A DNA stretch of 64,000 bases from Coleofasciculus sp. LEGE 07092 (GTDB lineage Bacteria > Cyanobacteriota > Cyanobacteriia > Cyanobacteriales > Coleofasciculaceae). The first letter of the stretch is position 1. Every line of letters begins with the position of its first letter. A model generated the notes under the pieces. The model searched no databases. It was not told the DNA's origin and saw nothing but the letters and a program-made list of their open reading frames with translations. Location: the NCBI RefSeq assembly GCF_015207375.1, contig NZ_JADEWY010000011.1, forward strand, positions 1-64,000. The letters run 5' to 3'. Position numbers and translations under genes: made by a program. This document shows positions 15,337 through 43,595 of the stretch, piece by piece.

Positions 15337-15573
15337 AGTTGGTGATGGGTTCTGTTTTGAAATACCAATACAACTTTACCGGATAGAGGAAGTTGGTGGT
15401 GTGCTTTATCCTTCAACATTGCCACCTCGCAATCTGGCAAGAAAACAGAATTTATCATTCAGACTCTGATTGGGCAGAGTAATCGCACTTGAAGAAACCA
15501 AGCTGGATGCCTAGCCGATTGGCGATCGCAACTAAAATGAGGACAAGAATACTCAAAACACAGGGGACACAGA

Positions 15574-15645
15574 ATGCAGACGCAACTCATGGTTCAACCT
15601 TCATCGTTGATATCTTCTGGCATCCAGTTGAGAGGAGACAGATAA
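15574..15645 (+). pseudogene. Possible N-terminal stub of an unrelated gene
   Basis: A 23-codon frame (MQTQLMVQPSSLISSGIQLR) is cut where the sequence shared with the tandem module begins (GACAGATAAC, near 15638). The beginning resembles starts of some cyanobacterial Uma2 proteins, but it is too short to identify. It marks the left boundary of the duplicated zone. Confidence 0.25.
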
Positions 15646-15660
15646 CCAAGATATATTAAT
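15630..15660. repeat. Left edge of the module repeat (copy 0)
   Basis: GAGACAGATAAC-AAGATATATTAATTGAG recurs almost unchanged at about 16822 and 18797, each time just downstream of a Uma2 gene and before a PEP-CTERM gene tail. Here no Uma2 gene precedes it, so copy 0 has lost that gene. Confidence 0.7.
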
Positions 15661-15683
15661 TGAGTCGCTCAATACCCTCTCAG

Positions 15684-15822
15684 TTAATTGTTGTCTTTAT
15701 TCTTCTGCTTTTTAGCAAACTATCCGTAATATCCATTCGGATAAACTGGGCAGTAGTTGTATTGAAGTTAAATACTTGGGTAGTGTCAGTGCCCAACTCA
15801 AAATTTTGAAGAAAAGAACCTA
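15684..15822 (-). pseudogene. Decayed PEP-CTERM gene (copy 0)
   Basis: Minus-strand relic of the gene at 16873. Its 3' end still spells AKKQKNKDNN and stop, the same end as both intact copies. After a deletion that removes the PEP motif and membrane helix, TAQFIRMDI follows in another frame, matching TAAQFIQMDI of the intact protein, and then decayed sequence. It belongs to the passenger type of copy 1, not copy 2. Confidence 0.75.
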
Positions 15823-16059
15823 TTGTAAAGTTGTGATGAAGCGACAGGGCTAAAATCATAAATTTTCATCGCCATAACCATCGTGTTGATTCAAGGTTTA
15901 GAGATAAACCTTGAATCAACACCGCTAACCTATGTTCAAAACCCGCCCTTAATCCTTGGCATCTCACCCCTCACCCTTATGCCAAACATTATTTATAACC
16001 GTCATCGCACAACGCTAAAATGAACGTAACCGTTAGCGATTAAAATTAAAGCGTGTCAG

Positions 16060-16743
16060 ATGTCAATTAGTCCCACCATTTCTCCTCCTCCCCTAGAAAG
16101 TGGCGATCGCCTCACACGAGTAGAATTTGAGCGTCGCTATCAGTTAATGCCAGACAACAAAAAAGCGGAGTTAATAGAAGGAGTGGTTTACGTGGCTTCA
16201 CCCGTTCGTGCCAATCGTCACGGTAAACCCCATGCCAAAATAATCACCTGGTTGGGAACGTATGGGGTGGCGACACCGGGAGTTGATGTGCAGGATAATA
16301 CTACAGTCTGTCTGGATGCCGATAACGAACCTCAACCGGATGCTTTACTGCGAATTGAACCGGAAGTAGGAGGGAATTCTCGGATTACTGAAGATGATTA
16401 TATTGAAGGCGCACCGGAGTTAATTGTGGAAATAGCGGCTTCGAGTGCCTCTTATGACTTAAACGATAAACTGAATGCCTATCGTCGCAATGGTGTCCAA
16501 GAGTATATTGTGTGGCAAAGTTACGAAAATCGCATTGATTGGTTTCGCTTAGAAGAAGGACGATATGTTTCCGTAGAACCCGATGAAGCGGGGATTATTC
16601 GCTCTCGTATTTTTCCGGGATTATGGTTAGCGGTAAATGCATTGCGCGAGGGAAATTTAGCTGAGGTTTTGGCAGTGTTGCAGCAGGGAGTACAGACAGC
16701 GGAACATCAGGCATTTGTGCAGCGTTTGAATCCGCAGGGGTAA
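16060..16743 (+). CDS. Uma2 family endonuclease (copy 1)
   Basis: A 227-residue protein of the Uma2/DUF820 family, PD-(D/E)XK nuclease fold, greatly expanded in cyanobacteria and of unknown substrate. Features: KKAELIEGVVYVASPV (first acidic residue), a central DNTTVCLDADNEPQPDALL, and the core PELIVEIAASSASYDLNDKLNAYRRNGV with E-x-A followed by the Lys. The C-terminus is AEHQAFVQRLNPQG. It differs from copy 2 mainly at residue 29 and within about 60-88; everything after EPQPDALL is identical. It is convergent with a PEP-CTERM gene. Confidence 0.9.
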   Translation: MSISPTISPPPLESGDRLTRVEFERRYQLMPDNKKAELIEGVVYVASPVRANRHGKPHAKIITWLGTYGVATPGVDVQDNTTVCLDADNEPQPDALLRIEPEVGGNSRITEDDYIEGAPELIVEIAASSASYDLNDKLNAYRRNGVQEYIVWQSYENRIDWFRLEEGRYVSVEPDEAGIIRSRIFPGLWLAVNALREGNLAEVLAVLQQGVQTAEHQAFVQRLNPQG

Positions 16744-16872
16744 TTAGGTATGTCATCCAAAAAACTATTTCAATTTCACTCATCATCGGGAATTAAACCA
16801 AGACAAAAGTCTCCCCTTCCAGAGAGACAGATAACGAGGATATATTAATTGAGTCGCTCAATACCCTCTCAG

Positions 16873-17553
16873 TTAATTGTTATCTTTATTCTTCTGCTTT
16901 TTGGAATTCTTTCTATTGAATAACGCACCAAAGCCTAGAGCCGTGGCAGAACCGAAAATAGTCATAGGTTCAGGAACAGGTTCAGGCGTAACGTCAGCCG
17001 TCTTAAACGCAACTTCGCCAATTCCTGTGCTAGAAGAACCATGATTACTCAGAATATCCATCTGGATAAATTGGGCGGCGGTGGGATTAAAATTGAATAC
17101 CTGGGCAGAGCTGGGTTGAGACTGTGTATTAGCATTAAAAGAACCTAAACTCATGAAACTGCCAGCATTTCCAGTAGAAGAAGCCAATAACTCGAAGTCT
17201 GATACGCCAAAAGAGGGATTTCCTGAAAAATTCCATAACGCCATCCCTTCCAGGTTGAGAACATTGCCAAAATCGAATGTCACCGATCCAGTGGCATCAG
17301 AAGAAATCCAATCTGTTCCTGGTGCAGAAGTGTGTGTGGGATTTCCTGACAAATAAGTATCAAAGGCAGTCACACCAGTGGTATACCCAACGGACAATCC
17401 AGATTGGTCAATACTATGAACTAAAGGAAAGTTTTCTCCCATATCTGTTGAAGCCGATTGAGGTTGAACAATTGAAGTGGCTTCAGCTTGAGTAATCGCT
17501 CCCAGTGCCATAACTGTAGCGCCAACGGTAACAAGAGATAATGATTTCAGCAT
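16873..17553 (-). CDS. PEP-CTERM protein, discoidin-like passenger
   Basis: A 226-residue exported protein. Signal peptide at 1-25 (MLKSLSLVTVGATVMALGA...AEA). The passenger at about 30-185 has a jelly-roll/F5-8C-like pattern: DWISSDATGSVTFDFG, LEGMALWNFSG, FELLASSTGNAGSF, AQFIQMDILSNHG. The sorting tail at about 192-226 is VPEP, a hydrophobic GSATALGFGALF and basic RKNSKKQKNK: a PEP-CTERM signal for exosortase. No exosortase gene is in the window. The tail is identical to that of the gene at 18848 although the passengers are unrelated. Confidence 0.88.
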   Translation of the reverse strand: MLKSLSLVTVGATVMALGAITQAEATSIVQPQSASTDMGENFPLVHSIDQSGLSVGYTTGVTAFDTYLSGNPTHTSAPGTDWISSDATGSVTFDFGNVLNLEGMALWNFSGNPSFGVSDFELLASSTGNAGSFMSLGSFNANTQSQPSSAQVFNFNPTAAQFIQMDILSNHGSSSTGIGEVAFKTADVTPEPVPEPMTIFGSATALGFGALFNRKNSKKQKNKDNN

Positions 17554-18034
17554 GGTTTAATTAGATGATTTCGTTTGCTTGAGCAGTTAATTTGCTTCAA
17601 TAAATAAATCATGACCTACCCCCCCCCGATGGTGTAAAGATGTATTTTGAAACTTTACAGAAACTTAAAATAATTGAAACTTAAAAATTCATCAGGCGTA
17701 TAAATGAATTGTGAAATGGCAATCCTGAGAGAATAAGGGTTTCAGGGTCATTTCTGTTCACAAATCATTTAAACTAACGGGAAATTGTTTAACTCGTTTT
17801 ATAAAGTTGTGATGAAGGAACAGGGCTAAAATAATAAATTTTCATCGCCATCGCCATCGTGTAGGGGCGGGTTTAGGGTTAAACCTTGAATCAACACCGC
17901 TAACCTTTGTTCAAAACCCGCCCTTAATCCTGGGCATCTCACCCCTCACTCTTATGCCAAAGATGATTTATAACCGTCATCACTCAACGCTAAAATGAAC
18001 GTAATCATTAGCGATTACAGTTAGAGAGTGCCAG

Positions 18035-18718
18035 ATGTCAATCAGTCCCACCATTTCTCCTCCTCCCCTAGAAAGTGGCGATCGCCTCACACGAGTAGAA
18101 TTTGAGCGTCGCTATCAGCAAATGCCAGACAATAAAAAAGCCGAATTAATTGAAGGAGTGGTTTACGTGGCTTCACCCGTTCGCGCCAACCGTCACGGTA
18201 AACCCCATGCTCAAATTATCGGTTGGTTGTTAGTGTACGAGTCAGAAACTCCGGGTGCATATCTGGCTGATAATACTACAGTCCGTCTGGATGCCGATAA
18301 CGAACCTCAACCGGATGCTTTACTGCGAATTGAACCGGAGGTAGGAGGAAATTCTCGGATTACTGAGGATGATTATATCGAAGGCGCACCGGAGTTAATT
18401 GTGGAAATAGCGGCTTCGAGTGCCTCTTATGACTTAAACGATAAACTGAATGCCTATCGTCGCAATGGTGTCCAAGAGTATATTGTGTGGCAAAGTTACG
18501 AAAATCGCATTGATTGGTTTCGCTTAGAAGAAGGACGATATGTTTCCGTAGAACCCGATGAAGCGGGGATTATTCGCTCTCGTATTTTTCCGGGATTATG
18601 GTTAGCGGTAAATGCATTGCGCGAGGGAAATTTAGCTGAGGTTTTGGCAGTGTTGCAGCAGGGAGTACAGACAGCGGAACATCAGGCATTTGTGCAGCGT
18701 TTGAATCCGCAGGGGTAA
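18035..18718 (+). CDS. Uma2 family endonuclease (copy 2)
   Basis: A 227-residue near-twin of the gene at 16060. The first 59 residues differ only at residue 29. Residues 60-88 differ at about a dozen positions (QIIGWLLVYESETPGAYLAD against KIITWLGTYGVATPGVDVQD), and from EPQPDALLRI to the end the proteins are identical. This patchy divergence suggests gene conversion. Same fold and probable nuclease activity as copy 1. Convergent with its own PEP-CTERM gene. Confidence 0.9.
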   Translation: MSISPTISPPPLESGDRLTRVEFERRYQQMPDNKKAELIEGVVYVASPVRANRHGKPHAQIIGWLLVYESETPGAYLADNTTVRLDADNEPQPDALLRIEPEVGGNSRITEDDYIEGAPELIVEIAASSASYDLNDKLNAYRRNGVQEYIVWQSYENRIDWFRLEEGRYVSVEPDEAGIIRSRIFPGLWLAVNALREGNLAEVLAVLQQGVQTAEHQAFVQRLNPQG

Positions 18719-18847
18719 TTAGGTATGTCATCCAAAAAACTATTTCAATTTCACTCATCATCGGGAATTAAACCAAGACAAAAGTCTCCCCTTCCAGAGA
18801 GACAGATAACGAGGATATATTAATTGAGTCGCTCAATACTCTCTCAG

Positions 18848-19531
18848 TTAATTGTTATCTTTATTCTTCTGCTTTTTGGAATTCTTTCTATTGAATAGCG
18901 CACCGAAGCCTAGAGCCGTGGCAGAACCGAAAATAGTCATAGGTTCAGGAACAGGTTGGGGAGGAGTATTATTCATCTCAACCCCAAACGTTAGTGGTTG
19001 AAATGAAGTACCAGTAGCATTGGTTGTGACTGATAAGGAGCTAACCGGGTCATTAAATTGAATAACTCCATTATGAAAACTACTGCCCGGTACAGACAGG
19101 GTATTTCCGCTAACCGTTGCCGCTCCGAGTCCAGAGAGAATGGTAAAGGGCTGATCAAATGCATAAGTAACTGGATCAGCGCCTGAAAAAGTTCCTCGCC
19201 AAAAGACAGGATATAACAACAGATCAGAAACAGGACTCGAAAAAGTAGCAGTCCAGTCACTACTTACCCTGTAAGAAGTAGTTTGTTGGGAACTGGAAAG
19301 GGGAGCCGCCGCATAATTACTACCGGATAGATCCGTAGAAAAAAATTGGACTCCAGCCGAAAAATTCACATCGACTCCATTTAACTCTCCCATGGTAGGA
19401 GTTGCCCAGTTTACCCCAACTGTAGCTGCCATTGTTGGCGCAGAAAACGCAACAAATGTGCCAGTGACGGCAGTAGCAGCGATAGCAATGGATTGAGACA
19501 AGGCTTGAGAACGTACCATTAATTGCTTCAT
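18848..19531 (-). CDS. PEP-CTERM protein, different passenger
   Basis: A 227-residue exported protein with a longer signal peptide (1 to about 35, ending APTMAA). The passenger at 36-190 is Ser/Thr/Gly-rich beta-type sequence I do not recognise (GVDVNFSAGVQFFSTDLSG, VSSDWTATFSSPVSDLL). The last 35 residues, from PVPEPMTIFG to KNKDNN, are identical to those of the other PEP-CTERM protein. Expected to be processed by an exosortase and displayed or secreted. Confidence 0.87.
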   Translation of the reverse strand: MKQLMVRSQALSQSIAIAATAVTGTFVAFSAPTMAATVGVNWATPTMGELNGVDVNFSAGVQFFSTDLSGSNYAAAPLSSSQQTTSYRVSSDWTATFSSPVSDLLLYPVFWRGTFSGADPVTYAFDQPFTILSGLGAATVSGNTLSVPGSSFHNGVIQFNDPVSSLSVTTNATGTSFQPLTFGVEMNNTPPQPVPEPMTIFGSATALGFGALFNRKNSKKQKNKDNN

Positions 19532-19893
19532 GTTATTAGATATATAAGGGTTTAATTTGCTTCAGTAATTAAATTGTTATCCCCCCCCTTTTTTTGTCAA
19601 GAACTATTCTGAAACTTTACGGAAGCTTTAACTTCTACAAACAACCGATTTACGAATTGAGATGACCGATAGTGCTGATACAGTAAGGGTTGAAGGGATT
19701 TTTATTTTTAAATATTTGTATAAAGTTTTGATGAAGAAGATAAGGTCGAAAAAATCTTTTCCTACCTTTCCTACCTTTTTAAACCTCTATTTATGATTCA
19801 TCCTGCGGTTAAAGTAAGCGGCTAGATGCGGATGAATCGCTAAAGCGCGATCGGCTATGGTGATAAATGAACGTAAAAGCTAGAGAGTGCCAG

Positions 19894-19956
19894 ATGTCAG
19901 TCCGTCCAAGGGTTTCCCCTCCTCCCTTAGAAAATGGCGATCGCTTCATTACATGA
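19894..19956 (+). pseudogene. Truncated Uma2 gene (copy 3)
   Basis: A third start of the Uma2 gene with its upstream sequence (AGAGAGTGCCAGATGTCAG). The frame reads MSVRPRVSPPPLENGDRFIT and stops at TGA, matching MSISPTISPPPLESGDRLTR of the intact copies. The rest of the gene is gone. A MITE-like element is inserted 18 bases further on. Confidence 0.8.
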
Positions 19957-19974
19957 GATCGCTCGATGTCAACC

Positions 19975-20060
19975 CAATACTACTCGGTTAACCTCTCCCC
20001 CTGCCCTAGTAGAGAAGGGGGGCTGGGGGGGTTAGGTCAGCCAAATGCCGAGCAGTATTG
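19975..20060. mobile_element. MITE-like hairpin element with target duplication
   Basis: An 86-base element. Ends CAATACTACTCGG and CCGAGCAGTATTG are inverted repeats with one mismatch in 13. The centre folds into a G/C-rich hairpin (CCTCTCCCCC against GGGGGGTTAGG). It is flanked on both sides by the direct repeat GATGTCAACC (19965-19974 and 20061-20070), as expected of a transposed element. Confidence 0.75.
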
Positions 20061-20070
20061 GATGTCAACC

Positions 20071-20241
20071 TCAAGATTCAGGTATATTCAAAACATTGGC
20101 TTGTAACAGCAACCTCCGTTCCTCCACCCGTTCAGGACGATTCATCTGTAACAAGCGCACTGTCACCCGTCCAATTGCAGTCAACGGTATAATTTCGCTC
20201 TCCTCTAGCTGAAAATGATCCCGCCAGCGATCGCGCTCAGG
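20071..20241 (-). pseudogene. C-terminal gene fragment, family unknown
   Basis: Minus-strand frame open for 57 codons, ending ...ERRLLLQANVLNIPES and stop. It has coding-like, charged sequence (HFQLEESEIIPLTAIGRVTV) but begins after an in-frame TAG with no start codon. It may be the tail of a Uma2-like or other gene cut by rearrangement. I cannot name it. Confidence 0.4.
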
Positions 20242-41879: not shown

Positions 41880-43595
41880 ATGTCTGAATCACAACTGCCT
41901 TTAGTTTCCAGGATTGAAGAAATCGAACAGCGCTACAATACTGTAGCGAAGTATGCAGCAGGAATTAAGCGCCAGTTAGAGACACTAACCGAACAATTTA
42001 ACCAACGACCTGAGTTGCAGCAGATAGAAAGTCTAAGAGATGAGTTTTTGGCACTGCAACAGCGGTTTAATCAGTTACCTGCGTTGAGTAATAACGTAGA
42101 TAATATTAATACTTTTGAAATATCCACCGAATCGGCAAATCCTGATGATGTTGAAATAGTGAGGCAATTTTTTGAACGGGTTGACCAGCAACAGGGTCAA
42201 GAATTACTGACAGAGGTAGTCACTCAACCGTCTGGCGAATTGCCGATACAACCTGCTGATAGTTCTGTAAATACTAATGATGCTGAAATTTCGCAAGCTC
42301 AAGAGGCTGATAACGCTACTGAATTAGATGAAAGTGATAGAGCTTTTACTGATGAAGAATTTAAGACAGAACGAATAATGTGGCTGTTGAACAGAATTTA
42401 TGCAGCCGAGGAAGAGAGTCTTGAAATACCTGTAGATGCTGAAGAATTTTTGAAGCGGTATAAAAATAAAGAACATGAATTTGCTGGAATTAACTTAGCC
42501 GGAGCAAAGTTGAGTGGAAAATGTTTCAATCATGGTTTCATCCTCAACCTAAGTGGTGCGAATTTGAAAGGGGCTGAACTGTGTGAGACAAACCTCTGTA
42601 GCGCCAACCTAAGTGGTGCCAAGTTAAACAATGCCAACTTTTACAAGGCAAGACTGGAGTCAGCCAAGTTAGAGAAAGCCAAACTAATAAAGACAAACCT
42701 TAATAGTGCTAATCTGGGACAGGCAAACTTAAGTGAAGCCAACTTAAGTGAAGCGTGCTTGAGTCATGCAATCCTCTTTAAAGCTAACCTGAATAAGACT
42801 AACCTCAGTAGAGCAAACTTGCAGAACGCTAGCTTGAGGGAAGCAAATCTGAGAATGGCGAATCTAAATGATGCTAATCTGAGTAATGCAATTTTATTCG
42901 GGACAAATCTTGAAGGAGCTAACCTTGAAGGAGCTAATCTCCAGCAAGCGCTTTGCAATACGGCAACTATTTTCCCCGCCGATTTTGACCCCGTTAAAGC
43001 TGGTGTCTATTTGATTGCTCCTAGCGCGTCACTGAAAGGGGCAAATCTGAGTTCCATCAACCTCAATGAGGCAGACTTGAGAGAAGCTAACTTAAGTAGG
43101 GCAAACTTAAGTAAGGCAAATTTGCAAATTGCAAGACTCCTTCAAGCTAATCTGAGTGAAGCTAACTTAAGCGAGGCTAACCTAACTTGTGCTAATTTAA
43201 CGGCGGCAAACCTTAGTGGAGCCAATCTAAATCAGGTCAACTTAAAGGACGCTAATCTAACGGCGGCAAACCTGAGTAAAGCAAATCTGAAAAATGCACA
43301 AATTTCTAAAACAAACTTCAGCGGCGCGAATCTGATTGAAGTCAATCTAGTCGGGGCAAGGTTGTTAGGAAATTTGAGTGGGGCAACTTTGCACAAAGCC
43401 AACCTCTGTGGAGCTTATCTAGGCAGCGTAAATTTGAGCGGAGCAAACCTTACTTCAGCAGATTTGCGTGGGGCAAACTTGGAAGGAGCAAACTTAGAAA
43501 AAGCTAACTTAAAAGACGCTAACCTCAGTGGAGCTATCCTCAAAAATACAAAGTTCAGTGGTGCAATCATGCCAGATGGCACAACTCACGAATAA
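41880..43595 (+). CDS. Pentapeptide repeat protein
   Basis: A 571-residue protein. Residues 1-70 are predicted helical/coiled coil (VSRIEEIEQRYNTVAKYAAG). Residues 70-190 are acidic and low in structure. From about 205 to 565 there are some 65 pentapeptides of the A(N/D/K)LxX type forming a right-handed quadrilateral beta-helix. The repeats are broken near 360-380 by TATIFPADFDPVKAGVYLI, probably a loop. No signal peptide. Role unknown; such proteins often mediate interactions. Confidence 0.93.
   Translation: MSESQLPLVSRIEEIEQRYNTVAKYAAGIKRQLETLTEQFNQRPELQQIESLRDEFLALQQRFNQLPALSNNVDNINTFEISTESANPDDVEIVRQFFERVDQQQGQELLTEVVTQPSGELPIQPADSSVNTNDAEISQAQEADNATELDESDRAFTDEEFKTERIMWLLNRIYAAEEESLEIPVDAEEFLKRYKNKEHEFAGINLAGAKLSGKCFNHGFILNLSGANLKGAELCETNLCSANLSGAKLNNANFYKARLESAKLEKAKLIKTNLNSANLGQANLSEANLSEACLSHAILFKANLNKTNLSRANLQNASLREANLRMANLNDANLSNAILFGTNLEGANLEGANLQQALCNTATIFPADFDPVKAGVYLIAPSASLKGANLSSINLNEADLREANLSRANLSKANLQIARLLQANLSEANLSEANLTCANLTAANLSGANLNQVNLKDANLTAANLSKANLKNAQISKTNFSGANLIEVNLVGARLLGNLSGATLHKANLCGAYLGSVNLSGANLTSADLRGANLEGANLEKANLKDANLSGAILKNTKFSGAIMPDGTTHE

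What the first reader, a model, noticed from the sequence alone, without database searches (positions are those of the whole stretch)
16060..19531. Duplicated module in which the exported passenger is exchanged but the PEP-CTERM tag and flanks are kept
Two units 1975 bp apart share the Uma2 gene, the spacer, the last 35 codons of a PEP-CTERM gene (identical protein) and a related promoter region, but the roughly 570 bp coding for the passenger differ completely. This looks like recombination at conserved flanks that swaps surface-protein domains onto a fixed sorting tag, with a nuclease-fold gene (Uma2) as constant partner. A Uma2-linked cassette of this kind is not known to me.
Basis: partly seen in the sequence, partly recalled or inferred. 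Interest (0 to 1): 0.8.

Follow-up and report, generated by a model that had tools for sequence, protein, structure and literature searches.

The report
Swappable surface proteins with switchable promoters
Two neighbouring cyanobacterial genes join unrelated, predicted exported parts to one identical sorting tag, each with a run of G's upstream that is predicted to switch it on and off, and at three loci in another cyanobacterial genus the same middle part differs sharply between closely similar flanks, likely through recombination, which would give such bacteria a way to vary their surface.

Summary
In detail: two units 1975 bp apart share a Uma2 gene, a spacer, an identical 35-residue PEP-CTERM tag and a related upstream region, while the passenger differs (173 of 571 bases). 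The array is larger: a decayed third PEP gene on the left, a Uma2 stub on the right. The shared 689-bp block (8 differences, 460 bases identical) looks gene-converted, and PEP-A's tag looks overwritten by PEP-B's. Uma2 is no constant partner: 0 of 80 Uma2 loci show a PEP tail and 0 of 18 passenger-exchange loci hold Uma2. Yet exchange on a fixed tag is real elsewhere: in one unnamed genus, three collinear loci keep promoter, leader and tag but carry unrelated (two loci) or barely related (one) passengers. Both window genes, and 20 of 27 stereotyped promoters of two related genera that precede a PEP tail, have a G7-G14 run between -35 and -10 hexamers; its length differs among near-identical promoters. 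Best reading: phase-variable, passenger-exchanging PEP-CTERM loci; switching is inferred. By-product: tandem Uma2 pairs are homogenised except for one patch of about 30 residues.

The parts
15635..15829 (-). Decayed third PEP-CTERM gene (unit 0): end of the tag with its 3' flank (15635-15713) fused to a fragment of an A-like passenger (15722-15829); most of the tag and passenger are missing
   Evidence: tag end reads AKKQKNKDNN in one frame, passenger fragment in another
15895..16059 (+). Upstream region of Uma2 U1, 149/165 identical to that of U2
16060..16743 (+). Uma2 gene U1 (PF05685), 227 aa
16236..16293 (+). Heterologous patch in U1 (32/58 identical to U2; within aa 48-80, the region that stays unlike in most tandem Uma2 pairs)
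16294..16982 (+). Homogenised block: Uma2 3' part, spacer and PEP tag; 8 differences in 689 bases from 18269-18957
16873..16983 (-). PEP-CTERM tag region of PEP-A with stop codon; last 35 residues identical to PEP-B
16873..17553 (-). PEP-A, 226 aa; passenger resembles F5/8 type C / CBM32 domains
17619..17627 (-). G9 run (coding strand) 66-74 nt upstream of PEP-A, after a TTTACA hexamer; predicted slippable promoter spacer
18035..18718 (+). Uma2 gene U2 (PF05685), 227 aa
18848..19531 (-). PEP-B, 227 aa; no Pfam domain over cut-off; predicted beta-sandwich
19581..19588 (-). G8 run (coding strand) 50-57 nt upstream of PEP-B, between TTGACA and AACAAT (spacer 16)
19878..19948 (+). Stub of a third Uma2 start (85% to U2 start over 71 nt)

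Best explanation
The window holds two predicted surface-protein genes with unrelated passengers, an identical PEP-CTERM tag and related upstream regions with a G8 or G9 run, and they are likely two occupants of one type of locus in which recombination at constant flanks exchanges the exported part while slippage in the G run is predicted to switch each gene on and off. Shown: the sharp break at the tag edge; a homogenised block lying between two heterologous blocks (Uma2 patch and passenger); and, at three loci of another genus of the same order, collinear DNA in which upstream region, leader codons and tag are kept while the middle of the gene is unrelated (two loci) or barely related (one). 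Shown too: G runs of differing length in -35/-10 spacers upstream of many PEP-CTERM genes there. Inferred: that general homologous recombination does the exchange, that the G run changes transcription, and that the products sit outside the cell and bind sugars. The Uma2 genes are most likely neighbours caught in the same duplications, not the engine.
For: Breaks and conversion tract. Tag of PEP-A equals PEP-B's, while its 95% relative P0001 has three other tag residues, the decayed unit 0 keeps the A-type residue, and B relatives P0029/P0030 have the B-type at both S/A sites. Passenger exchange: L399/L401 150 nt upstream 0.99, leader 1.00, signal-peptide codons 0.96, tag 0.94, 3' flank 0.88, passenger E 2.6; L402/L403 tag 0.98, passenger E 0.97; L406/L408 150 nt upstream 0.98, tag 0.97, passenger 37.5% over 80 aa. 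One gene in L400 has one group's leader and another group's tag. G runs: the only two in the window; a PEP tail follows 20 of 30 pattern matches in genera g68/g81 (17 in the first ORF, 3 behind an interrupted frame; 18 by HMM, 2 by regex only) and 1 of 10 elsewhere; 6 of 6 tested proteins pass TIGR02595; run length differs among near-identical promoters. Two exosortase genes in the own genome.
Against: No close relative of the window locus could be read as DNA, so exchange at this very place is not witnessed. 10 of the 30 matches have no PEP tail. Only 2 of 7 own PEP genes have a run. The window promoters do not meet the strict pattern (0 in the own genome) and promoter-like sites in 15500-20100 are not above shuffles (11 against 8.6, sd 3.0). 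13 of 16 A-family loci checked show no G/C run of 6 or more near the start, one of the other three has it 191 nt away. Run lengths in assemblies can be sequencing error.
Confidence: 0.6

Rival explanations
1. Concerted evolution only: an old tandem array of Uma2 and PEP-CTERM genes, whose two unrelated PEP genes once came to share a tag, is kept alike by gene conversion; the G runs are incidental.
For: Conversion tract and remnants of a larger array; A and B each have their own relatives with the same tag type; only two passengers carry this tag.
Against: It does not explain replaced passengers at collinear loci of genus g68 nor G runs placed in promoter spacers before PEP genes.
Confidence: 0.28
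2. A Uma2-driven cassette: the predicted nuclease cuts at the flanks and drives exchange of the neighbouring passenger.
For: Uma2 lies at both units; Feder and Bujnicki propose that such nucleases are recombinogenic (PMC551604, discussion read).
Against: 0 of 80 Uma2 loci show a PEP tail at E<=0.1; 0 of 18 large PEP loci of genus g68 hold Uma2.
Confidence: 0.04
3. PEP-A and PEP-B are one family that diverged beyond recognition while the tag was conserved.
For: Equal length and both predicted as beta-sandwiches; one weak colinear BLASTP match, 30 aa, E 0.029.
Against: Profile comparison finds only the signal peptide (probability 3.4%) and 0.2% without it; B relatives elsewhere carry other tags; only A matches CBM32/discoidin folds strongly.
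Confidence: 0.05
4. Assembly artefact: the repeat was mis-joined in a draft genome.
For: Draft assembly, 296 contigs.
Against: The two copies differ in promoter, Uma2 patch and passenger; PEP-A and PEP-B relatives exist independently in other data; G004 has a tandem Uma2 pair with the same kind of patch.
Confidence: 0.03

Closest known systems
PEP-CTERM/exosortase sorting system (TIGR02595, TIGR04155; Haft 2006, PMC1569441, sections 5 and 7 read)
   Same: C-terminal tag on otherwise unrelated proteins; tags more alike within a species than between; frequent gain and loss of genes; tag described as a modular domain
   Different: Wholesale passenger replacement between fixed leader and fixed tag at one collinear locus and a G-run promoter are not in the sections read; their upstream motif was found only in proteobacteria
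Promoter-spacer phase variation by homopolymer slippage (Neisseria porA/opc type; recalled, no call)
   Same: G run between -35 and -10, run length varies among relatives
   Different: Here before cyanobacterial PEP-CTERM genes; switching not demonstrated
Cassette or segment exchange in bacterial surface proteins by recombination at conserved flanks (recalled, no call)
   Same: Constant ends, variable middle
   Different: Constant end is an exosortase tag; no silent donor cassettes were identified
Uma2 / COG4636 predicted PD-(D/E)XK nucleases (PMC551604, passages and discussion; PMC2701414, passages)
   Same: Tandem paralogous copies are described in both papers
   Different: A patch that stays unlike in otherwise homogenised tandem pairs is not in the passages read

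Membership tests
PEP-CTERM proteins | C-terminal tag over the curated cut-off | tested here: met
   TIGR04155 52.9 and 53.3 bits, cut-off 21.6
PEP-CTERM proteins | Exosortase in the same genome | tested here: met
   PF09721, two genes over cut-off
PEP-CTERM proteins | N-terminal signal peptide | not tested
   N-termini look like signal peptides by eye; no predictor was run
PEP-CTERM proteins | Export and cleavage by exosortase | not testable with these tools
   needs proteomics
Uma2 | PF05685 over cut-off | tested here: met
   120.1 and 122.2 bits, cut-off 27
   0 of 80 and 0 of 18 loci
Promoter phase variation | Homopolymer inside the -35/-10 spacer | tested here: met
   PEP-B 10/12 with spacer 16, PEP-A 9/12 with spacer 19 by consensus only
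Promoter phase variation | Run length differs among near-identical promoters | tested here: met
   met in genus g68 (G10/G11/G14, G11/G8, G11/G7); not testable for the window's own promoters
Promoter phase variation | Reversible change of expression within a clone | not testable with these tools
   needs reads or reporters
Passenger exchange at constant flanks | Unrelated middle between collinear, closely similar flanks | tested here: met
   met at L399/L401 and L402/L403, weaker at L406/L408; not testable at the window locus for want of a close relative

The most novel reading that the evidence does not exclude
Cyanobacteria run contingency loci for their surface: PEP-CTERM genes whose promoters are switched by G-run slippage and whose exported part is exchanged wholesale between a fixed leader and a fixed sorting tag.
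Probability: 0.55. Interest if true: 0.85.

Novelty: new variant of a known kind. Interest (0 to 1): 0.74.

Why it matters
Why environmental bacteria keep many fast-changing PEP-CTERM proteins is an open question. A slippable promoter plus exchange of the passenger on a fixed tag would explain their turnover and predicts surface heterogeneity within one clone, with bearing on phage, grazer and mat interactions. It can be tested by reading one G run in deep reads. Separately, the Uma2 patch points to the part of an abundant, uncharacterised predicted nuclease family that stays different between tandem copies, so perhaps its specificity or partner surface.

Full report
What is there. The window lies in a draft genome of 6.7 Mb and 296 contigs; named relatives of its proteins are cyanobacteria, the nearest named PEP-A kin Coleofasciculus MAGs. 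From left to right it holds a decayed PEP-CTERM gene (15635-15829, minus), Uma2 U1 (16060-16743), PEP-A (16873-17553, minus), Uma2 U2 (18035-18718), PEP-B (18848-19531, minus) and a Uma2 stub (19878-19948). It is the remainder of a tandem array, not just two units. Both Uma2 proteins match PF05685, both PEP proteins pass TIGR04155; the genome has seven such tags and two exosortase genes.

Homology breaks. At offset 1975 the identity runs 149/165 (15895-16059), 167/176 (to 16235), 32/58 (to 16293), 106/111 (to 16404), 460/460 (to 16864), 115/118 (to 16982), then 173/571 over the passenger. Uma2 codons 116-227 have no difference, silent or not; codons 1-58 have 7 silent and 1 changing. An array of some age with a recent conversion tract between two heterologous blocks explains this. 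The tag suggests the direction: P0001, 95% identical to PEP-A, has three other residues in its 35-residue tag; B relatives P0029 and P0030 differ from the window tag by one residue each; window A equals window B; the decayed unit 0 has the A-type residue. So PEP-A's tag was probably overwritten by PEP-B's. One A relative, P0003, also has the window's tag exactly.

Uma2 is not the partner. In 80 named loci around close Uma2 relatives no PEP tail was found at E<=0.1, with working positive controls. Feder and Bujnicki (PMC551604; passages and discussion) report no preferred neighbours except tandem copies; the toxin-antitoxin survey PMC2701414 (passages) says that Uma2 genes mostly form cassettes of paralogues.

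The upstream runs. The window has exactly two runs of 8 or more G/C, 66-74 and 50-57 nt upstream of PEP-A and PEP-B, at corresponding places of related upstream regions. On the coding strand they follow TTTACA (G9) and TTGACA (G8, then AACAAT at spacer 16). In 79 runs from the own genome, 11 run-strand combinations have a -35 of at least 5/6 just upstream; PEP-B scores best (10/12), PEP-A (9/12) ties with two. The five other own PEP loci have no run of 7 or more. Of 16 A-family loci in other genomes, L194 has G7 at -47, L191 C9 at -53, L200 G11 at -191 from the first candidate start, 13 none. A pattern search over 243 genomes, matched in 75, showed a stereotyped promoter, TTGACA-AAATC-G(7-14)-TAnnnT, in eight genomes of genera g68 and g81: 32 matches (30 distinct) against 9 for the reversed control, summed by hand from the table; the own genome has none under this strict pattern. 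All 30 were fetched, with 10 from elsewhere. A PEP tail follows on the same strand in 20 of 30 and 1 of 10; by promoter type 20 of 27 against 1 of 13, Fisher p 1e-4, the type being defined afterwards. The outsider, L391, is from G011, of the window's own family. Run length differs among near-identical promoters: G10, G11, G14; G11, G8; G11, G7.

Passenger exchange. Larger stretches of 18 of these loci were compared within groups. In L399 and L401 the match runs from -6040 to +148 of the promoter (91-97%), stops, resumes at the tag (670-823 against 684-831, 86%) and goes on downstream at 97%; the passengers show no similarity (E 2.6). L402/L403 show the same (flank pieces 87-98%, passenger E 0.97). 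L406/L408 too (pieces 96-98%), but their passengers still share 37.5% over 80 aa. Base-level bins put the 5' edge about 30 to 110 nt into the gene and the 3' edge about 50 to 80 nt before its end, at the tag. Four genomes of one group carry three passengers (L363 and L368 alike, L375, L379); another group has three (L359, L367, L373) and an interrupted fourth, L370. One gene in L400 has the leader of one group and the tag of another. Gradual divergence is seen as well: passengers of L362/L364 and of L371/L372/L382 are related within each set.

How it most likely works. A fixed leader and a fixed tag give homology on both sides of any passenger; recombination there swaps or converts parts. In the window the tract went across the tag and the Uma2 3' part; in genus g68 the middle was replaced. 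The G run would make each gene's transcription reversible. That a cyanoexosortase affects extracellular PEP-CTERM proteins, motility and biofilm was reported for Nostoc punctiforme (PMC12188702; passages). The agents of exchange, the switching and the sugar binding are inferred.

Against it. No close relative of the window locus could be read as DNA; homopolymers are prone to assembly error; 10 of 30 matches have no PEP tail; 2 of 7 own PEP genes have a run; the window promoters miss the strict pattern.

By-product on Uma2. Among 16 distinct tandem Uma2 pairs the lowest 20-residue window begins between aa 44 and 66 in 12; three pairs have a near-identical patch and one is lowest near its C-terminus. 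By the rest of the protein the tandem partner is the nearest of the compared relatives for 24 of 32 members, by aa 48-80 for 7 of 32. Silent sites follow (L246: third positions 1.00 at aa 81-214, 0.79 inside). So tandem copies are homogenised but keep unlike patches, whose nearest kin often sit in other genomes. Some pairs come from the same genus, so they are not all independent, and most pairs are not significant singly.

Noticed in passing
window:16202-16300 and 18177-18275 (Uma2 aa 48-80); L048, L102, L128, L146, L239-L250: Tandem Uma2 pairs are alike at DNA level except for one patch: lowest 20-residue window begins at aa 44-66 in 12 of 16 pairs; partner nearest by the rest in 24 of 32 members, by the patch in 7 of 32.
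   Followed up: yes
L400:7162-7752 (minus): PEP-CTERM gene with the leader of one locus group and the tag of another, so the tag too can be exchanged.
   Followed up: partly
L391 (G011, family of the window): PEP-CTERM gene with TTGACA, G8 run and TA-rich hexamers upstream: the promoter type also occurs in the window's own family.
   Followed up: partly
window:17860-17947: Stretch between PEP-A and U2 that recurs at 79-95% identity in several genomes of the family: a dispersed repeat.
   Followed up: no
window:20417-21478: ISL3-type insertion element with 30-nt inverted ends (90% complementary); zinc-ribbon and DDE parts lie on two overlapping ORFs.
   Followed up: no
G000:C91:21213-21467: Lone Uma2 fragment, 88% identical to U1 over aa 81-165, on another contig of the own genome.
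   Followed up: partly
window:25447-27258 and 42580-43555: Tandem array of 126-nt units (13 copies in register) and a stretch of 15-nt units that looks like pentapeptide repeats.
   Followed up: no
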